Assembly (NCBI GenBank): GCA_003693705.1 | Contig: RBZT01000499.1 | Coordinates: forward strand, 124,001 to 188,000 | From: Polymyxa betae | Taxonomy: Eukaryota; Endomyxa; Phytomyxea; Plasmodiophorida; Plasmodiophoridae | Direction: 5' to 3' | Length of the DNA: 64,000 bases | Shown: positions 12,894 through 64,000 of the stretch, piece after piece | Layout: the number at the start of each line of letters is the position of its first letter | Position numbering within the stretch: the stretch's first letter is position 1 | The notes under the pieces: model-generated | What the model was told of the DNA's origin: nothing | Database searches by the model: none | What the model saw: the letters and a program-made list of their open reading frames with translations, nothing else | Translations under genes and position numbers: made by a program

Positions 12894-14328
12894 TTACATC
12901 ATATCGTTTTGTGCTCGATAAAAGGCATCAATTAGCGGCCCCACTGAGTACTCGTCGACGTCACTTGAAGAAATGTCAGGAAATGTAAAAGGCGAAAACT
13001 GGTCCTTACAGGTTTGGTACGCCCAACACCCCAGTGCGGATTAGCGTGTCCTCATCAACATCGACGCTGTGAATCGACAGCAAACCCAGCTTCAGAAGCA
13101 ATAAGTGCACATCATATTCTGTCTGGTTGCGGAAATGGGGAAGGTTTGGCTGTTGTCCGGTTCTGGGCATTAAAGGAATTTTACCTTGAAATGGATTAGC
13201 TATGGCCCTGTTGCTGATGAAACTAAGAAGCCATAACATCGGCTCCATCGCAATCGACCAGTATGGTCCGAATTGAAACCTTCTCATCAACTCGTTGACA
13301 GCGAATGGATTATGTATTGTTGGGACGTCATTGGAACCCCAGTTATACCCACCATACCATTCTTCTATCAGCTTGTCAACACCCTCTCTGCTCTCCTGAA
13401 GTCTTTCTTGTAACAGATTGAATCTCTTCCCGAACGAAGCGTGGATGTCTTCATTTGTATATCCAACAAGCGCCAATGCAGCTTCATCAAATGTTAAGTC
13501 ACTGATGTATCCAGGAATTTTCACATTGCCAATTCCCATATACATCTGAAATCTTATCTGGTCATCTTGAGCTTCAATCTCCTCAAAGAAATCATTAAGA
13601 ACTTTGGAGTTTGTTTGGATTCCTGAATCTTTCACTTCAGACTGGTCCATAAATAGTGTTTCAGAAACTGGAGCATCGACTTCGTCAACAAGGATCACGA
13701 CTTTTCCACTAGATGATAGCTTGGCCGCACTGCTAATCAAATCTCGCGTGGCTATTTTAACGGAATCCTTCGATACACAATCAGAAATTCCTAGCTGGGC
13801 AGCCATCGTCACCAATGTATTTCTCAGATTCGACTCAAAGTCGCGTCGTCGCGCTATGGCGCTCATATTAAAATGAAGCACAGCATGGCGCTCGTTGTTC
13901 CAGTCCCATTTGTCTGCTATAGCCAACCGGCGTCCGACAGTCCCATCAAACAGTTCTTTTTCACCACTGAATAGAGAAGCTAACGTTGTCATCGTCATTG
14001 TTTTGCCAAACCTTGGAGGACGACATAGGAGAAACTTTCGCTCCATTGCTAATATACGTTGTAGCTCAGCAGTCTTGTCCACCAGGTTGAATCCTTGTTT
14101 TTGCATCAAAGAGAACGTCGATATTTGTGATGAAACAGAAGATTCTGTCAACGGCCCTAACGGTAATTGTTGAAGAAACCCTCGGTGCTGATTCCTTGGT
14201 TGGAATTTTCCAAGAAAACGTCGAGTTGACATCGTAGTAAGCGTGCAAGTCGTGAAGCCGTATGAAGCACTATTGAAGTATGGCCGATCAAATTCATCGA
14301 AAGACTCCTGTATTTGTATCGACCCCAT
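12894..14328 (-). CDS. AAA-ATPase-like domain protein (PF09820 type)
   Basis: This gene belongs to a P-loop family known from bacteria and scattered protists and chytrids, usually N-terminal to a PD-(D/E)XK nuclease-like domain. Visible features: FNLVDKTAELQRIL, a Walker A region RPPRFGKTMTMTTLASLFSG, Walker B VVILVDEVDAPV, MYMGIGNVKIPG, LVGYTNEDI, EEWYGGYNWG and IHNPFAVNEL. A 46-nt intron near 12971-13016 leads to a last exon ending VPNLDVDEYSVGPLIDAFYR and a stop at 12894. The protein therefore ends where the nuclease-like domain would begin. The start at 14328 leaves a basic, Arg-rich N-terminus of about 70 residues that could be a targeting sequence. Function is unknown. Confidence 0.85.
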
Positions 14329-14534
14329 GGTCGCTATTATAAGCCGTAACAGTTAACAGAATATCAAATCGCCTTCGGTATTTCCAGAACTGGTTTGGTT
14401 CTCCATCATTTGTCAAAATGGTGGACATTCCGAAATTGATACAAGGAACGTACACGTCCTTCTTATAGTTGAGTGTGATCATGCGATCGTACTATCCCGC
14501 TCAAGTTGCATCAAATTCTGTAAGCTGGCTCTAA

Positions 14535-35900: not shown

Positions 35901-37814
35901 TCATTGAAACGCGCAATACCCTGGTCTGATGGGAGATGCATTGATACCCATGCTTACTAACCGGCATCTATGTAAATCTAGCCGATCTGCCAAGCTACTT
36001 CGTAATCCGCTATCATTCACGAGTTCTCGTTGACTCCATAAACGTTCAGCAGCTGTTCGAAATCAGAAGCCACCAACTCTGTTAAATTCAGTCTGTACCA
36101 GCACTGGCCCTTGGCCATATTCTTGAGATGGCATTTGTCTGATCAACTTTCTCTCCCCACATGCAGCTATGCCCGCCTAGTACCCGTTGTTTGGCATCTT
36201 CATCTGCATCGAAATCCAGCGGATCGCAGTTATACCTATTTAATAATCAGCATCAGCATGATGCGGGAAGGTTCGAGATTACATTTCGGGCCAGTCAGTC
36301 GCGAGATGATCCAAATACCAACAGCTGCTTAGCAAAGCACGGCGACCCGAGCGTGTGACATGAGCGACACCGTCCTTATTGTACCAAATGTCCACTATGG
36401 TGCTGGGATCCATAGGTAGATCGCTGTCAAATACCTGAAACAAATCATGACGAACTGTGTTTTTCGGCACGAAGAGCGATTGACCTCTTGCCAGACAATG
36501 GCCGTTATGTTCAATTTTGTGTTAGTCAAATCTTCCAGAAAAATTTGGTAATCGGCCAGAAGCTCTTTGGCATCTGTAATTCCATTCTGATGCATATAGT
36601 CTCGGATTTCTTCATCGCCCTGCAAGCAGTCGGTATCAACTTCGTCACCACCAAGATGTATCATGTCCGACACGTCAAAAACATCCACCGCTTCCTTTAT
36701 AAGAATCAGCCTAGGTTTGTAAGTTTCGATGGGACGAAATCGTTTTACCTGTAAGAGCGTCGTCATGAGTTGGCGGGTCTCCGGTTTCACCGGATTGATC
36801 ATGTACTGATTAGCTGGAGCCACATCGGGGCAATGGGCCAGCACTTCAGGATAACCAACCCCGAACGACGCCGAATGCCCAGGAGTGTCAAACTCGGGAA
36901 TGATTCGAATTCCTCTCAATAAAGCCAGCTGCGCTATATGGCGGACTGCAATGCTCATTCGTTGATAACAAGTCATGTACTGTTCAAACTCGTTACCATC
37001 TTCAGGTGAATATGTCATTCGAGGTGAGAATGCGGCCTGGACCAGTTGGACGTTCGTTTGCGATTGGAAAGGGAAGCTTTGGTCGTCCGAAACATGCCAG
37101 TGCAGAACATTCAATTTATCCATTTCCTGTCCAGAACATTCAGCCAAAAACGAGGCGAAATCCAACGATATGCACCATGCCATCAAGGATCGTCTCAATA
37201 ACGCTAATCGGCAAGAAATGTCGGGCAGTATCGATCATCAGGCCCCGGAACGGGAATGCTGGTCCATCGTCGATGGTGCCGCATCGGATGAAAAACTGGC
37301 GCTTGTGATCATGTCCAACTTGTTGAATCAGCTGCGAGAAAGTCTGCAATGCTCTCAGAACACCAAAAACAGTCGATGATCGAATTTGAACGCCGTGTCC
37401 GGGAGTGATCTCTATGTGATAATCCTCTCGTGTATATAAATCCATGACAATGGATGAGCTTTCAATCGAGACATGAATTTGTGAAGTCTGTCCAGCTATA
37501 TTACTCGGAGCCGCTGGGCTAGTTGGTCGGGCAGCTGCTATAGCCGGAATATTATTCTTATATCGTTGCTCTGCTTTCGAAAGAACGTCGCGGACCGGAT
37601 TCCAATCTGACTCGAAGATAATCTCCAGGTTTTCCGGTTGGAATCGCCAATACGCCTCGGGATCGGCATACTGAACCGAGGTTGGACGCGGCCAGACCGG
37701 ATCGCTCGGCAGATGGTGGCCATCGTCTGAAGTCGGTTGACGAAGGAGAAACAACGCCCCGGATAAAGGAATGAGGAGACGGACAAGAAAGGAGCTCAGA
37801 GCAGCGTCCACCAT
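35901..37814 (-). CDS. GH20 beta-N-acetylhexosaminidase
   Basis: Removes terminal GlcNAc/GalNAc from chitooligosaccharides or glycans. ATG 37814 starts an N-terminal hydrophobic segment (LLIPLSGALFLL), a signal peptide or anchor. The GH20 N-domain includes YHIEITPGHGVQIRSSTVFG and LRALQTFSQL. The catalytic barrel has FRGLMIDTARHFLPISVIE, LHWHVSDDQSFP, IRIIPEFDTPGHSASFG, and the acid-base motif DMIHLGGDEVDTDCL with the Asp-Glu pair. Later exons give GGHSCMWGEKVDQTN and AAERLWSQRELV, ending GINASPIRPGYC. All expected active-site elements are present and introns are short. It is divergent from the chitin-deacetylase-like gene at 38855, suggesting both act on chitin-type polymers. Confidence 0.93.
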
Positions 37815-38854
37815 TGCAAGATGGTTCTGGTGTTACTCACTCGCGCAACCATCGCGACGTGTAAGCAAAGTGATGTATAGTGGTGACACGTTGTGACGAA
37901 AGTCGCCTGTTCGCCGTCGCTCAGAGCGAGAGACTGCCGACTGCGAGACTGTGAAGTCGTGACCGTGCCCAGCAGCGGAGAACGACGTCCAGGAGCACGT
38001 CGCGAAGGATGCTTGTATACTGAGTTTCAAATCCGACTGCAGCTTCAAATATATGCTGGATTAGAGTTTTGAGCCATTCTCTTTGTATGCAACAACGGCA
38101 TCAGCAATTGGCCCGCATAACGGCTCAAATTCGGAGCAAGTGCAATTTTGGCTGCCAGTGATTGGTTTGGTTCGGGTTGGCTTCGAAAAACGATTCAAAA
38201 GTGTTTTGAATTTGATTGCGCCGGTGAAAACTTACAGATTTGTGATATTGTCCGAAGAGCAGCTATCGCATATCATCTGAGACCCAAAGTTACTAATCGT
38301 CAATTGATTATTAGCAGTGAGAATGAAATATCGTGGTACAATATCTATGAGAACATGTGTTGCTGTTTATGACGATAGCTATACTATAATCAAAGACAAT
38401 ATCTTTGATGTTTATGTGCGAAAATATATCCTCTCTGAATATGATGGAATAGACTTTAAAATAGTACGGTTATATTGTTGAACGTACAATGCGAAAAAAA
38501 AGGTCAAGACAGCAAGCTTTGGCTTGCCCGAACAACACATCAGAAAAAGAAATCAAACGACCAGTTGCGGAATCTGCTTGAAGGTCCCAGAAAACAGCGA
38601 AAACGTATCTGCAGTGGTCGATGGAAGAGCTGTTAAGTGGTTCCAAATAAGAGGTAATGAGCCTAATTATCTGTATCAAAAACAGAGTATGCCCACTCAG
38701 CATCGGTCGAAGATCTTATGGTTGACCCCATCAAGAAGTTGGTTGTTCACCGACTTGCATTTCTAAAAGGCACAATCCAGTCCAGAGCTTGCAGGCGTTC
38801 GTATATTTGAGTCAGCGTTGTCGGTGAATTAGTCGGTGACGCGTGCCATCCAGT
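37815..38854. other. Divergent region between hexosaminidase and deacetylase; possible unrecognised gene
   Basis: About 1.04 kb. The two chitin-related promoters should be at its ends. A plus-strand start at about 38087 (MQQRHQQLARITAQIRSKCN), a possible intron, and an exon reading CFEFDCAGENLQICDIVRRA then AIAYHLRPK look protein-like, and a basic frame RKKRSRQQALACPNNT lies near 38490. I cannot join these into a convincing gene or name a family. Nothing else stands out. Confidence 0.35.
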
Positions 38855-53715: not shown

Positions 53716-54393
53716 ATCATCGTACCAGTTTTTGATCAAGCCATGCAATACCGTCTTGCAGCCCTTCACCTGTTAGCGAATTACTAGGACTATAGCAGGA
53801 TCTAAGTGAAAACACTCATAATTAACCGATTTGTCGTACGTGATTGTCCATGGGCGATCCGTAACCTGGTCCAATTTCAGGAGTTTCGACATTTCTGGAG
53901 CCGTCAATGCGTCAGGCAAGTCGATTTTATTTGCAAAGATCAGCAACGGTATCGGTTTTAAAGCAATATCTGGAATGCACGATTCAATGTTCGCCACTTA
54001 AAACGATTTGCCCAGTACCTTTATGACTTAGAAGCGCCTTAAGCTCGTCTTCCACGACACACATTCTGACGGTATCAGCCGAATCTATTACGAATATAAC
54101 TGCTTGCGCGTCTTGATAATAGTGCTCCCAAAGGTTTCTATATCGCCCTTGTCCTGACATATCGAACATAGTAAAATTGGTTGTGCCATGTCTGAAATTC
54201 TCAACTTGGAAACCCACAGTTGCTTGGGTCTCAGCTACCTGAAATGTGGTGTCATTATTGAAAATAAAGATGTTGCTAACTGAACTTTATCCTTTGCTGG
54301 TTTCAAATAGTTGATAATTGTGGATTTCCCGCTGTTATCGAGCCCAACAACAAGAACACGACATTTTTTTGTGCCTGAGAATATGCCACCCAT
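53716..54393 (-). CDS. ARL6: Ciliary small GTPase ARL6 / BBS3
   Basis: Recruits the BBSome coat to ciliary membranes in its GTP form. ATG 54393 gives [20 protein letters not shown] then [12 protein letters not shown]; Gly-2 allows myristoylation-type or amphipathic membrane binding, and GLDNSGKST is the P-loop. Later exons have [20 protein letters not shown] (switch II), [31 protein letters not shown] (G4 NKxD) and a C-terminal [20 protein letters not shown]. The string [16 protein letters not shown] is diagnostic for ARL6 rather than other ARF-like GTPases. Its start is 118 bp from the chosen start of divergent IFT54. Confidence 0.95.
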
Positions 54394-54511
54394 CAGGGTA
54401 AGCCGTAAAAGATTTAGAAATGGAAATGGACTGGGACTGACACTTTCTCAGTCTTATGAGCTTCGTGTCACATTGTTGAGCCTCCGATCTGGTGAGCAAT
54501 TCCAAGAAATC
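54394..54511. promoter_or_regulatory. Putative bidirectional promoter, ARL6 / IFT54
   Basis: Only 118 bp separate the ARL6 ATG from the likely IFT54 ATG at 54512. It contains no obvious RFX X-box. If the upstream in-frame ATG at 54383 were used instead, the two coding regions would overlap head to head by 11 bp. Confidence 0.5.
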
Positions 54512-56610
54512 ATGTCGCTCGACGATATGGTCGAAAAGACATCTACGCTGATCAGTTCGGTGATTCAGAAGCCCAAGATGACCCCAAAGTTACTTGCCAA
54601 ACCGCCATTTCGCTTCTTACACGACATCTTTATTGGAGTTACGAAGGCGACTGGGTTAGGCGAGGGCTTGTTTGAAGGCGATCTTCTCGATTCATCCAAG
54701 TTCCAAGACAACAAAGAAGCCAAAATGCTTTTCTTGAAGAGGTGGATTGACTTTGTCAGTGTTTCAGCCGGGGAATTGCTCCAAGCTGACCCAAGAAAAA
54801 TCATATCGGGGCTGGACGTCGAAAATACGAATTTGATGCTGCAAGCTTTCGCATTGCTTGCCGTTCGGGTTCGCGATGGCCTAGTATCCAATGCTGAACT
54901 TACCAACCGGTTCCTCGGCACCTCACCAGAAACATCAGCTGTTCAGCCAGGCTCCAATTTGATACGTCAACAGGAGCCGGTCGTCCAGAGCGCTCCTTCA
55001 CAGCCAGCATCACTAGGGTCTTCAATCGCATCGCATATGGATGACGCTAGTAATCCAATCCAACAAGGGACAAAGGCAATGGAGAGAAACCCTACGGATG
55101 CCAAAGTGACAGAAAGTATAACCGACAATGAAGTGGCAAAAGTGACGGAGAGGAAACCTATTACCAGTGATGACGTATCGTTGTCAACTCCTCCAAGTCT
55201 CTCTCGCCCAACCTCATTAACAAATGACAATTCATCAAGCGACAAATCATTCGTGGGGGTCACCCAACAGAAACTGGGAGCTATCATCACCCGACCGACC
55301 CTGAAAGCTGAACTGCTACAACGCCCGCCGCTTCGATTTCTTCAGGATGTTGTCAGAGAGGTTCATGCGGCTACAGGATGCCTGGGTAACAACTTCCAGC
55401 CCGAGGAATTGACTAAGAAGTTAGAAAAGGACGAGAAAGCAGCATTTTTGGAGAAACTGGTCGCGTTCATATCGTCAACGAGTGGAGTCGGGCTGAATAT
55501 CAATATCAAAAAAGTTCTTGCTGGACAGGATCCTGAAAGGACAAACGAACTTTTGCAGCTCCTTGCTGATATCGCCAGACAACACATGCTCAGGACCTCT
55601 GAGGTTGCTCCAAAATCATCAGCTGAATTTGAACTGAAACCTGCTCAAGCTAAAACAGATACTGATCGCTTATCGAAAACAAAGAACACCACGAAGGAGA
55701 CGCCGATAGAACAGGGAAAATCGATGAACAGTGGGCTCGATGACAAACCCATTAAACGCACTGCTTCAGAAGCCAAAATCGCACCCAAAAGAACAGATCT
55801 TCAAAACTCAAAACAGTAGACTTCTTTTTGGAATGTGTTTGAATACGGCTGAACCATTGTAGGTCATATCAAGAACAGGTATCCAGAACTTTGGATTTGC
55901 CTTTTTTGTCGAATGAGAAAACAGCAGTGGCAGGTGCTGCCCCTCCCAAAATCCAAGAATTCGCCAAGACGGATTCTAAGGTGGAAGAGTCAATCTCGGT
56001 TCCTAGCGGAATAATTTTAGAAGGCGAAGAAGCGAAAGACGATATCGATGATCAAGAAGATGAAGACGAAGATGCCAATGCTAGAGCTGATTTAGCAACC
56101 ACTCCTGGAACCGTAGAAGATGAAAAAAAGCACGGGCGTCTGGTACGAGATATTCTGAAGCAACAGGAGAAGTCAGCTGCCCTCAACGATATTCATGAGG
56201 GCCAGGCTTCAGCGGCTGAACGATCAGCTGGAATTAAGCTCGGCCGTATTGGCGGTAAAGACCGGCGAAGCAGTTATTCTCAACAAATGATCGACCACCT
56301 GAGAGAGAACATCCAGAAAGTATGTCAGAGTGTGAATCCGTTGGGCAAATGTATCGATTTCGTAGACGAGGACTTAGAACTGATGCGCCTTGAACTTGAT
56401 AAATGGAGACAGGAGCAAGTTGTTCAGAAAGCCAAATTGGAGAAAGAGCAAAAGGCTTCTGTCGAGTTCCTTCTGCCGCTAGAGAATGATCTGCAGAAGA
56501 TCGAGAAGCAAATTGCTGAGGCCAGGATTCGCACACAAAAGCTTCGAGGAAATATCATTCGAAATGATGACCAGCTTAAAATGTTACTAGAAAGGCAGAT
56601 AAAGGCTTAA
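54512..56610 (+). CDS. IFT54: Intraflagellar transport protein IFT54 (TRAF3IP1) with duplicated N-terminal domain
   Basis: IFT-B subunit that links kinesin and tubulin cargo. From ATG 54512 (MSLDDMVEKTSTLISSVIQK), the CH-like domain has LLAKPPFRFLHDIFIGVTKA, SVSAGELLQADPRKIISGLD and VENTNLMLQAFALLA. A Ser/Thr-rich linker leads to a second copy at about 55260-55610: ITRPTLKAELLQRPPLRFLQ, VREVHAATGC, INIKKVLAGQDPERTNELLQ then LLADIA. A 45-nt intron (about 55828-55872) joins the C-terminal part, with the acidic segment, DEKKHGRLVRDILKQQ, NIQKVCQSVNPLGKCIDFVD and the terminal coiled coil KLRGNIIRNDDQLKMLLER. Known IFT54 proteins have one N-terminal domain, so the duplication is unusual. Confidence 0.92.
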
Positions 56611-58835: not shown

Positions 58836-61152
<2,317 letters not shown>

Positions 61153-61430
61153 ATGGTCTCACTCGGATCGAAGCCTGGAGCTGTTACTGTCCTTGCAGCA
61201 TGTGTAGGCAGTGTTGCGGTCTCTTATTTTCTTATGAACACTGTCAGTCCTCGTGGTATGTTTTAGAATTGAGCCATTGTCTGTCTTTCACTCAGTTTTG
61301 CGGCTGTGCAGTTAACACTCCCCGTACCGAATCGCCTGAATGGAAAGAGGCTGAACTCTTGTATCGACTTCGTCAGAACCAGAACCCGATCTTCGGATAT
61401 GCATCTCAAGCAGTAAAGAGCGAGCACTAA
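61153..61430 (+). CDS. Small single-span membrane protein
   Basis: ATG 61153 encodes MVSLGSKPGAVTVLAACVGS then VAVSYFLMNTVSPR, one hydrophobic span; an intron of about 55 nt (GTATGT...TGCAG) joins VNTPRTESPEWKEAELLYRL then RQNQNPIFGYASQ, an amphipathic, charged C-terminus. The protein has about 70 residues. Size and topology fit small inner-mitochondrial-membrane or ER proteins such as respiratory-complex accessory subunits, but I recognise no family. The clean splice and the matching open frames support coding. Convergent with the CNH-VPS9 gene. Confidence 0.6.
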
Positions 61431-61500: not shown

Positions 61501-64000
61501 TCATGTACTATTACTAGTGTTTGTACTCCAAACGTGTTGGGTAGTTATCGCCCTTTCTTCTAGGACTGTATTAATGGCTTCAGCGCTCAACGATTGCATT
61601 TGAATGTCGTTGCATTGCCTAGCTTCAAACAAATTGCTGATATGTTCCAGACAAATCGACATGGTTGTCAGAACGTACCCTTGAAAACATTATATGTTTG
61701 ATGCACAAACCCTTTTTCTCACATACCTATATGTCCTCTTGATTCTGCCGGGGAGATAAGCGCAGACATAAACGAGAGATAACTGTGAAGCCTCTCTACG
61801 CCAGATTGAATTACAATGAAAACCAGTATTGGAATGTATTCATCAGCAGTGAGTTCAACGACACCACAATTATCCTGTTTCTACTGTTTCAAAAAAGCGT
61901 AACCAGTAAGCACATCTTGAGATCATACCCCGGCATCTTGGATAGTTTTGTAGATCGTCTTGCTAAGATTTTCACTTAGCAATTCAAACATTGCAAATGG
62001 CGATCTGAGCAAAGGTAATGTCCGCAAAAGCGAAAAAGAACTCTTGAAAAAGTTTACAGGATCTTCAATCTGAACAGTTCAGCGTTTTGATCAGTGTGAC
62101 ACCTCAACCACTAACCTTGATACTGCTCCCAAGCTGGACCAAAGTCATATTCTTTAGCTTCTCATATGAATCAGAGAGCTTTAGGTCGTCATCGGTAAGC
62201 TGAAGACACGTTTCATCGTTAGAACTCAATGTTTATCATTTTGTGCATGCTTGACATACCTTTGAATTGAATTGCCCCATTAAAGAGTCGAAAATGTTGC
62301 CAGAGAACACTGCAAAACTGATCCATAAAGTCACTAAATGCTGATGCCTCTCATTTAACTGGATCTCGTTGGCGAGAAAGTCATCAAAAATGCATCCAGC
62401 AAAATCGTCTTCAGACAAGTACATTAGTCAATGACCTTCATCTCAAATGCTCTCTTACCTATAAACATCCTTATTTGGCGGCAAAAAGACACAGGATCCT
62501 CTGCTGTCAAGTCAGGCTGACTCCCAGTAAAAGCGGATATCGATTGGGCATAAGGGTGCGTCGAATTTGAAGCTAGAGAATTGTTGAAGAAGTTTTGCAT
62601 ATGCAATTCTCTTTCAACTCCATCGCTCTTGGCAACTTTATCCAGGAAGAAAACATCTCTAAACGCAATGGTCAATTCCTGTTACTTAAGGTTCATTAAT
62701 TCGGTTGTACCTCTGAAGCACTTCATTGGAAATCCGACGCAAGACAAACACAGCTTCAGAATTACCGGCAACAATGACTTCCGACGTGGCTAAAAGAATA
62801 GATATATTTACAAGATCAATGCGTCCAATGGGGTGCGAGATGTCGTCAATGGTAAAGACACCGATATGATCGCGAAATGATACAAACAGTAAACTGTCTT
62901 GAACACAAAGCGCTATCGGTGTTCTACACGACCCGTATTGAAGGATTCTCATCAGTACATAACAAAAAATATATATACCTATATTCACCCCAGTTTACTC
63001 TTGAATGGATGTTAATTCCTGAACATTGGAATAAAAATTGAGCAACGAAATAGGAATGCACCCATACCGTCAGGTCGAAAAGAAAAAGATAATGCGTTAG
63101 TACTACTGGATAATATGGTATGTGCCGAGTTGACGCTCACATTGAATGCAGGACCGGATTCAAACAGCCTAAATAAACTGTCAACAGAAAGCTTCGATAA
63201 ACTGTTATCTGAAAGACTACAAGCCCACCAGAGAGAGTTAACATGACCCGAATCCACATCGACCAGAGTGAACTCCCTGTCGAATCCGACGCAAAGTTTT
63301 CCACAGATCCAAGAGAGTGACACTGGAGCACCAGGAACAAAGAGCGCTTTTTTCTCAACAGAAAGTCAGCATTGACTTTTGAACTTCCTGCTGACACTAA
63401 CTGAGGACCGAAAGGTTTTGGAAGCGTTATCAAATTCGCAAAACGTCAGCTGCTTTCTGGTGGCCGTGATGATTTCGACTGACCCAAAAACCGGCCGGGT
63501 AATAAATCTGACGGCGTTGCTGACAAGGACCCCGTTCTCCTGGACAGGAACGACACCGATATGGCCGAACGATGCCAGCGAGAATACATGAATGACTCCC
63601 TCTAGAGAATTGTGAGCCAAGTTAGGGAGCGGCCATGATGACTATACCACTCAGTGCCAAAATGACATGGACTGACTCGAGTACAGTCAATTGTGTTACA
63701 GGGCCCTGCCTCCTTCCAATTGCGCTGAGACATCCTCCAGATTTCAACAAACCATATTCAATCTGTATGAACGAGTTCTTTAGCCACGGGTGAGAAGCCT
63801 GGGGAATGCAGACCTTGTGGCACATAATCTGACCTGATCGAGTCCCGAGCAGGACAAGACCGCTGGTCGCCGCCGTTGATGTCACTTGGGTCTGCTTCGG
63901 TAGGACCTGACGGCTGGTCGCCATCCAGGCTCTGTGATCCTGATCTGGCGTCATGGCCAGAAATGGTCTCGCGGCCAAACTAATGGTGCAGGGTTCAGGT
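61501..64000 (-). CDS. CNH-domain protein (Vps39/TGFBRAP1-type) with C-terminal VPS9 Rab5-GEF domain
   Basis: The N-terminal two thirds form a citron-homology beta-propeller like Vps39/TGFBRAP1: GLVLLGTRSGQIMCHKV, GPVTQLTVLESVHVILALS, EGVIHVFSLASFGHIGVVPV, TATRKQLTFCEF, LSWICGKLCVGFDREFTLVD, and VFVLRRISNEVLQR. Splicing continues in frame through DVFFLDKVAKSDGVERELHM, DDFAGCIFDDFLANE and LTDDDLKLSDSYEKLKNMTL to a helical segment and the VPS9 core: ELTADEYIPILVFIVIQSGV then ERLHSYLSFMSALISPAESR and YVLTTMSICLEHISNL. VPS9 domains activate Rab5-type GTPases. The frame is open to the right edge, so the start may be near 63954 or outside. No stop or internal start separates the two halves. Confidence 0.8.

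What the first reader, a model, noticed from the sequence alone, without database searches (positions are those of the whole stretch)
61501..64000. A CNH beta-propeller fused to a VPS9 Rab5-GEF domain
The sequence gives one continuous, spliceable frame from a Vps39/TGFBRAP1-type CNH domain into a VPS9 domain (ADEYIPILVFIVIQSG and following). Established knowledge: CNH domains of this type occur in the HOPS/CORVET tethers (Vps39, Vps3/TGFBRAP1), which bind Rab7 and Rab5; VPS9 domains are the exchange factors for Rab5. I do not recognise this combination. Inference: the protein may both activate and bind a Rab5-like GTPase, coupling activation to tethering on endosomes.
Basis: partly seen in the sequence, partly recalled or inferred. 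Interest (0 to 1): 0.75.

Follow-up and report, generated by a model that had tools for sequence, protein, structure and literature searches.

The report
CNH propeller joined to VPS9 domain
A root parasite of sugar beet (probably Polymyxa betae) appears to have one gene that joins a CNH propeller, a kind also found in endosome tethers, to a VPS9 domain, the part of other proteins that switches on the endosome protein Rab5; I found no earlier report of this pairing, and what it does is untested.

Summary
An 11-exon minus-strand gene, window 63954 to 61501 (656 aa, ten GT..AG introns of 31-60 nt), scores over the Pfam cut-offs for CNH (42.1 bits) and VPS9 (52.5 bits). An outside gene model supports the join: BVRB_035060, filed under Beta vulgaris on a 677-bp contig, is an exact substring (residues 287-442) and crosses the two introns between the domains. 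That record and the 45% GC point to Polymyxa betae. The VPS9 part keeps the residues aligned to Rabex-5 D313, P317, Y354, T357 (numbering recalled), so a Rab5-type exchange factor is likely. The 'tethering' inference is not supported: no Vps39_1 or zf-Vps39_C match, and published passages place complex assembly in the C-terminal half of Vps3 and modelled Rab contact on Vps39's solenoid. The genome has a separate Vps39-type gene, so this is an extra protein. A Vps39-type CNH is compatible, not proven. Three paper searches and a Vps9 survey gave no CNH-VPS9 protein; distribution across eukaryotes could not be tested. Likely role: CNH as targeting module of a Rab5 exchange factor.

The parts
61501..63954 (-). 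whole gene, CNH-VPS9 protein, 656 aa, 11 exons
   Evidence: spliced model (first version); Pfam CNH and VPS9 both over cut-off
63213..63708 (-). stretch matched by Pfam CNH (residues 83-216, two introns inside); the propeller as a whole probably spans residues 1 to about 352 (63954 to about 62725; inference)
   Evidence: 42.1 bits against cut-off 26; coordinates
62659..62710 (-). intron 5 (52 nt, GTACAACC..GCGTTTAG), the main join between the CNH and VPS9 parts; unspliced, the CNH frame would end at a stop inside it (62686-62688)
   Evidence: same splice used in P0001
62409..62458 (-). intron 6 (50 nt, GTAAGAGA..GTCTGAAG)
   Evidence: same splice used in P0001
62353..62922 (-). stretch that corresponds to the outside gene model BVRB_035060 (P0001, residues 287-442): end of the CNH part, linker, start of the region before VPS9
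61630..62033 (-). VPS9 domain (residues 514-614, two introns inside)
   Evidence: 52.5 bits against cut-off 27; the genome-wide family search also finds it
61830..61844 (-). DEYIP, residues 559-563: D559 and P563 aligned to Rabex-5 D313 and P317
   Evidence: alignment; positions; Rabex-5 numbering recalled
61666..61677 (-). YVLT, residues 599-602: Y599 and T602 aligned to Rabex-5 Y354 and T357
   Evidence: alignment; positions; Rabex-5 numbering recalled

Best explanation
One gene encodes a Rab5-family guanine nucleotide exchange factor. The C-terminal VPS9 domain opens the nucleotide pocket of a Rab5-like GTPase; the N-terminal CNH propeller is a protein-binding targeting module that places this activity on a particular endosomal membrane or partner. 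Shown: the fusion in a spliced model, the domain matches, the aligned exchange-site residues, Rab5-like genes and a separate Vps39-type gene in the same genome. Inferred: exchange activity, choice of Rab5, targeting by the propeller. It is not expected to be a HOPS/CORVET subunit or a tether by itself.
For: Pfam CNH and VPS9 in one spliced protein, both over cut-off. P0001, an outside gene model, crosses the two junction introns and is identical over its 156 aa. The final RefBeet-1.1 set kept genes with 1-100% expression evidence (PMC4556409, Table 8 passage), so P0001 probably had some transcript support (inference). D, P, Y and T of the exchange site aligned; the D559 and P563 columns are invariant in the 5-row alignment, the Y599 and T602 columns are not. 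Rab5-like genes: C1:88059-88683 in three pieces of 83, 71 and 56% identity, C330:32148-32790 in three pieces of 62, 64 and 45%, among 35 matches in all. Separate Vps39-type gene with CNH and Vps39_1; two other VPS9 loci. CORVET without both N-terminal propellers of Vps3 and Vps8 localises poorly (PMC3688683 passages), a precedent for a targeting role.
Against: No activity, partner or location data. The VPS9 domain is divergent (14, 22, 22 and 17% identity to four other VPS9 rows) and there is no DUF5601 helical-bundle match. Aligned catalytic residues do not prove activity. The CNH subfamily is unresolved. The introns of P0001 may be pure prediction. In the Vps3/Vps8 work one propeller alone could be lost without effect.
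Confidence: 0.62

Rival explanations
1. Two neighbouring genes: a short CNH protein ending at the stop inside intron 5 and a VPS9 protein starting just downstream.
For: Intron 5 contains an in-frame stop, so without splicing the CNH frame ends there. Genes lie close: about 70 nt between this gene's stop and the end of the convergent neighbouring frame.
Against: P0001 crosses introns 5 and 6 as one coding sequence. Exon 6 (62658-62459) reads on in frame towards the VPS9 part. A CNH protein of about 366 aa with nothing after it would be odd (inference).
Confidence: 0.07
2. The VPS9 part no longer exchanges nucleotide, or only binds Rab5, and the protein acts as a scaffold.
For: Divergent sequence, 14-22% identity to four other VPS9 rows; phmmer match of the whole protein to Rabex-5 only at E 0.037.
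Against: All four aligned exchange-site residues are retained; Pfam VPS9 52.5 bits.
Confidence: 0.15
3. A Rab5 exchange factor that also works as a tether or CORVET/HOPS-linked subunit, as the first reader proposed (the propeller binds active Rab5, giving feedback).
For: The CNH part aligns with the Vps39 propeller 7ZTY (query 85-209 to chain 112-240, E 0.23); the own Vps39-type protein aligns to the same part (65-197 to 107-239, E 9.3e-6). Loss of the propeller reduced Vps21 binding of Vps8 and Vps3 (PMC3688683 passage).
Against: No Vps39_1 or zf-Vps39_C match up to E 1. CORVET assembly needs the C-terminal parts of Vps3/Vps8, and the Vps8 propeller alone showed no specific Vps21 interaction (PMC3688683); Vps3 is anchored to the core through its C-terminal helix (PMC11187117 passage); the modelled Ypt7 contact lies on Vps39's solenoid (PMC9592082). 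A Vps39-type gene exists separately, and a second one and a Vps8 probably do (all below cut-off).
Confidence: 0.13
4. Assembly chimera that joined two unrelated loci.
For: How the held assembly was made is unknown; the published Polymyxa betae draft is from Illumina reads (PMC6328671) and is another version.
Against: A contig filed under sugar beet encodes the same 156 aa across the join; its introns could not be compared at the DNA level.
Confidence: 0.03

Closest known systems
Rabex-5 and plant VPS9A, with yeast Vps9 (Rab5 exchange factors)
   Same: VPS9 domain; D, P, Y, T of the exchange site aligned with Rabex-5
   Different: CNH propeller in place of the zinc finger or CUE domain named for this group in PMC6032885; no DUF5601 match
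Alsin (ALS2): RCC1-type N-terminal propeller recalled; DH/PH, MORN and VPS9 from PMC6032885 passages
   Same: a propeller N-terminal to a C-terminal VPS9 domain, so the general plan has a precedent
   Different: CNH rather than RCC1 propeller; no DH, PH or MORN match
Vps39 / TGFBRAP1 (Vps3)
   Same: N-terminal CNH propeller, the Pfam domain shared with the own Vps39-type protein
   Different: no Vps39_1 and no zf-Vps39_C match; VPS9 takes that place
Vps9 proteins with kelch and other extra domains in individual taxa (PMC6032885, section 2.7)
   Same: lineage-specific domain gain; kelch is another propeller-forming repeat (recalled)
   Different: CNH is not named there; 'CNH' occurs 0 times in the main text; its Table S1 was not seen

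Membership tests
VPS9-domain proteins | VPS9 domain over curated cut-off | tested here: met
   52.5 bits, cut-off 27
VPS9-domain proteins | exchange-site residues (Rabex-5 D313, P317, Y354, T357; numbering recalled) | tested here: met
   D559, P563, Y599, T602
VPS9-domain proteins | helical bundle before VPS9 | tested here: inconclusive
   no DUF5601 match; helices suggested by eye only
VPS9-domain proteins | exchange activity on Rab5-family GTPases | not testable with these tools
   Rab5-like genes exist
CNH-domain proteins | CNH domain over curated cut-off | tested here: met
   42.1 bits, cut-off 26, residues 83-216, profile positions 30-162 of 255
Vps39/TGFBRAP1 (HOPS/CORVET) | CNH of the Vps39 type | tested here: inconclusive
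   7ZTY E 0.23 against MRCK-1 E 0.014; local score against own Vps39 62, reached by 0 of 300 shuffles, but global score 11.0, reached by 146 of 300
Vps39/TGFBRAP1 (HOPS/CORVET) | Vps39_1 / alpha-solenoid after the propeller | tested here: not met
   no match up to E 1; the same kind of scan finds Vps39_1 in the own Vps39-type protein
Vps39/TGFBRAP1 (HOPS/CORVET) | zf-Vps39_C at the C-terminus | tested here: not met
   no match up to E 1; yeast Vps3 also lacks a C-terminal RING (PMC11187117 passage), so this feature alone would not exclude a Vps3-like protein
Alsin | DH/PH and MORN before VPS9 | tested here: not met
   no match up to E 1

The most novel reading that the evidence does not exclude
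A phytomyxid (or wider rhizarian) Rab5 exchange factor that took over a tether-type CNH propeller after duplication of a Vps39/Vps3-like gene, so that Rab5 is activated exactly where the HOPS/CORVET-type propeller docks: a built-in coupling of activation to the tethering site.
Probability: 0.2. Interest if true: 0.6.

Novelty: new variant of a known kind. Interest (0 to 1): 0.42.

Why it matters
If real in vivo, this is a domain pairing that links two ends of the endosomal Rab pathway, the activator and a propeller of the kind found in tethers, probably in a rhizarian parasite. It offers a natural test of what a CNH propeller binds on its own, since no solenoid is detected behind it. It would also add to the lineage-specific extra domains of Vps9 proteins listed in a 2018 survey (PMC6032885, section 2.7).

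Tried and rejected
Protein database searches: the full-length query found none at E <= 0.001 among 7996 scored candidates; its length window leaves out P0001, which is 156 aa. The VPS9 region found none at E <= 10 among 336 candidates. The 5-row profile A1 found 1 of 7990, P0001. These searches need shared exact 5-residue words, so they speak against close relatives in that database only.

The CNH family search of the own genome gave 0 matches at E 0.001 and at E 10; it also missed the two CNH genes that I read there, so it is uninformative (short exons). Of the 2 Vps39_1 matches, C464 (23.5 bits, just over cut-off 22, 3 stops inside) I took for chance because I saw no Vps39-like frame there. 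Both zf-Vps39_C matches and both Vps8 matches of the genome searches are under the cut-offs. The C383 gene (zf-Vps39_C 23.5 bits, cut-off 24.7; another frame of it TPR_Vps41 22.2, cut-off 27) looks to me like a second Vps39/TGFBRAP1-type gene, but its hand-joined N-terminal part gave no CNH match and no PDB Vps39 match; left as probable. Vps8: 21.8 bits, cut-off 27; probable. NCBIfam gave nothing for the CNH part. The global alignment to own Vps39 was no better than shuffles.

Paper searches on the pairing: VPS9 + CNH domain 0 papers; VPS9 domain + TGFBRAP1 + domain architecture 0; at least three of CNH, VPS9, Rab GEF, domain fusion, Rhizaria 1 paper, the 2018 survey, with CNH 0 times. VPS9 domain + beta-propeller + Rab5 gave 7 papers, of which I saw the listing only; a wider search gave 423, of which 25 were listed. 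A phytomyxid phagocytosis paper has 0 occurrences of Rab5, VPS9, HOPS or CORVET (PMC10953367, find). The library lacks most subscription papers, and no tool here could query domain-architecture databases such as InterPro.

Full report
WHAT IS THERE. On the minus strand, window 63954 to 61501, an 11-exon model gives a 656-aa protein. All ten introns are GT..AG and 31-60 nt long. The start is the first ATG of its frame, and the stop lies 70 nt from the end of a convergent frame. I set the introns by hand from open frames and splice signals, guided also by single-exon scans and by remembered Vps39 and VPS9 patterns; in the first version intron 9 ended at an earlier AG and the protein stopped at residue 549. 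The spliced protein matches Pfam VPS9 with 52.5 bits (residues 514-614) and CNH with 42.1 bits (residues 83-216), both over the curated cut-offs. Single exons score lower. Weakest points of the model: the 40-nt exon 4 with its 31-nt intron, and the 5' end.

IS IT ONE GENE. The third protein search found one sequence, P0001: 'hypothetical protein BVRB_035060, partial [Beta vulgaris subsp. vulgaris]', 156 aa on a 677-bp contig, 100% identical. It is an exact substring of my model, residues 287-442. Passages of PMC4556409 (passages only) say that the 27,421 genes of the RefBeet-1.1 set are those with 1-100% expression evidence, without transposable-element homology. That BVRB_035060 belongs to that set, and that its introns themselves had read support, is my inference. 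It covers 2 of the 10 introns. As a record from another project it also speaks against a misassembly.

WHICH ORGANISM. Polymyxa betae fits: its published draft is 27.1 Mb in 1,001 contigs with 45.1% GC (PMC6328671, first of two parts of the text). The window has 45.3% GC and the held genome 24,426,232 bases in 541 contigs, so the held assembly is not that version. An 18S check did not complete in 8 attempts (see Tried and rejected). The assignment is likely, not proven.

THE VPS9 PART. D559, P563, Y599 and T602 align to ADDFLP and GYYFT of Rabex-5, that is D313, P317, Y354, T357 by recalled numbering. In a 5-row alignment the D559 and P563 columns are invariant and those of Y599 and T602 are not; identity to the other four rows is 14, 22, 22 and 17%. 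The genome search gave 4 VPS9 matches at three loci, 4 of 4 over the cut-off, 2 of them one gene: this gene; C525, where a neighbouring frame has a weak RasGAP match (E 0.05, below cut-off), GAPVD1-like; and C457, with a DUF5601 match just below cut-off, Rabex5-like.

THE CNH PART. The best PDB matches of residues 1-350 are the CNH of MRCK-1 (E 0.014) and 7ZTY (E 0.23), which is the Vps39 N-terminal domain of Chaetomium thermophilum. The genome's own Vps39-type gene (C201; CNH and Vps39_1 over cut-off) hits the same part of 7ZTY at E 9.3e-6. A short local alignment of the two own propellers scores 62 and is reached by 0 of 300 shuffles; the global alignment is reached by 146 of 300. So 'CNH' is firm, and 'Vps39/TGFBRAP1 type' is compatible but open.

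HOW IT MAY WORK. Best reading: a Rab5-family exchange factor whose CNH propeller is a targeting module. Passages of PMC3688683 say that CORVET without both propellers of Vps3 and Vps8 assembles but localises poorly, that one propeller can be lost without effect, and that the C-terminal parts are needed for assembly. They also report reduced Vps21 binding without the propeller, and no specific binding by the Vps8 propeller alone. A passage of PMC9592082 says that in the AlphaFold model Ypt7 binds Vps39's solenoid and not its propeller. As this protein shows no Vps39_1 or zf-Vps39_C match, complex assembly by the known route is not expected. Coupling to tethering is therefore not supported, though not excluded. 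A Vps39-type gene, a probable second one on C383 and a probable Vps8 are separate genes, so the protein is an addition and not a replacement.

NOVELTY. Three paper searches found no paper on this pairing; seven papers with 'VPS9 domain' and 'beta-propeller' were seen as a listing only. The 2018 Vps9 survey (PMC6032885: outline, passages and section 2.7 read; Table S1 not seen) lists many extra domains, kelch among them, and has 'CNH' 0 times in its main text. Propeller plus VPS9 has a precedent in Alsin (RCC1 propeller recalled). I rate it a new variant of a known kind. How widespread it is could not be tested: the genome collections at hand are prokaryotic, and the protein search reaches close relatives only.

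Noticed in passing
P0001, 677-bp contig filed under Beta vulgaris: A sugar-beet database record (BVRB_035060) appears to be a contaminant from the organism of this window, probably Polymyxa betae.
   Followed up: partly
window 13006-14352, minus strand: AAA-ATPase_like protein (PF09820, 101.9 bits), a family that I recall as patchy and often spread between distant groups.
   Followed up: no
window 54311-56610, plus strand: IFT54/TRAF3IP1-like frames (MIP-T3 204.6 bits, then MIP-T3_C 109.3 bits); the CH-like MIP-T3 domain matches in two stretches, so it may be duplicated.
   Followed up: no
window 61128-61430, plus strand: Small convergent frame with a below-cut-off COX4 match (22.2 bits, cut-off 26), 70 nt from the CNH-VPS9 stop.
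   Followed up: no
window 36395-37832, minus strand: Glycosyl hydrolase family 20 catalytic domain (119.9 bits in frame 36395-37234); the neighbouring frame to 37832 was not scanned.
   Followed up: no
L013 (G000:C201:34501-39639): Own Vps39-type gene runs off the contig end after Vps39_1; its eight introns as I set them are 50-225 nt, mostly longer than those of the CNH-VPS9 gene.
   Followed up: partly
L007:5612-7343, minus strand: Two very similar frames side by side next to the GAPVD1-like gene; the one scanned has a BTB domain.
   Followed up: no
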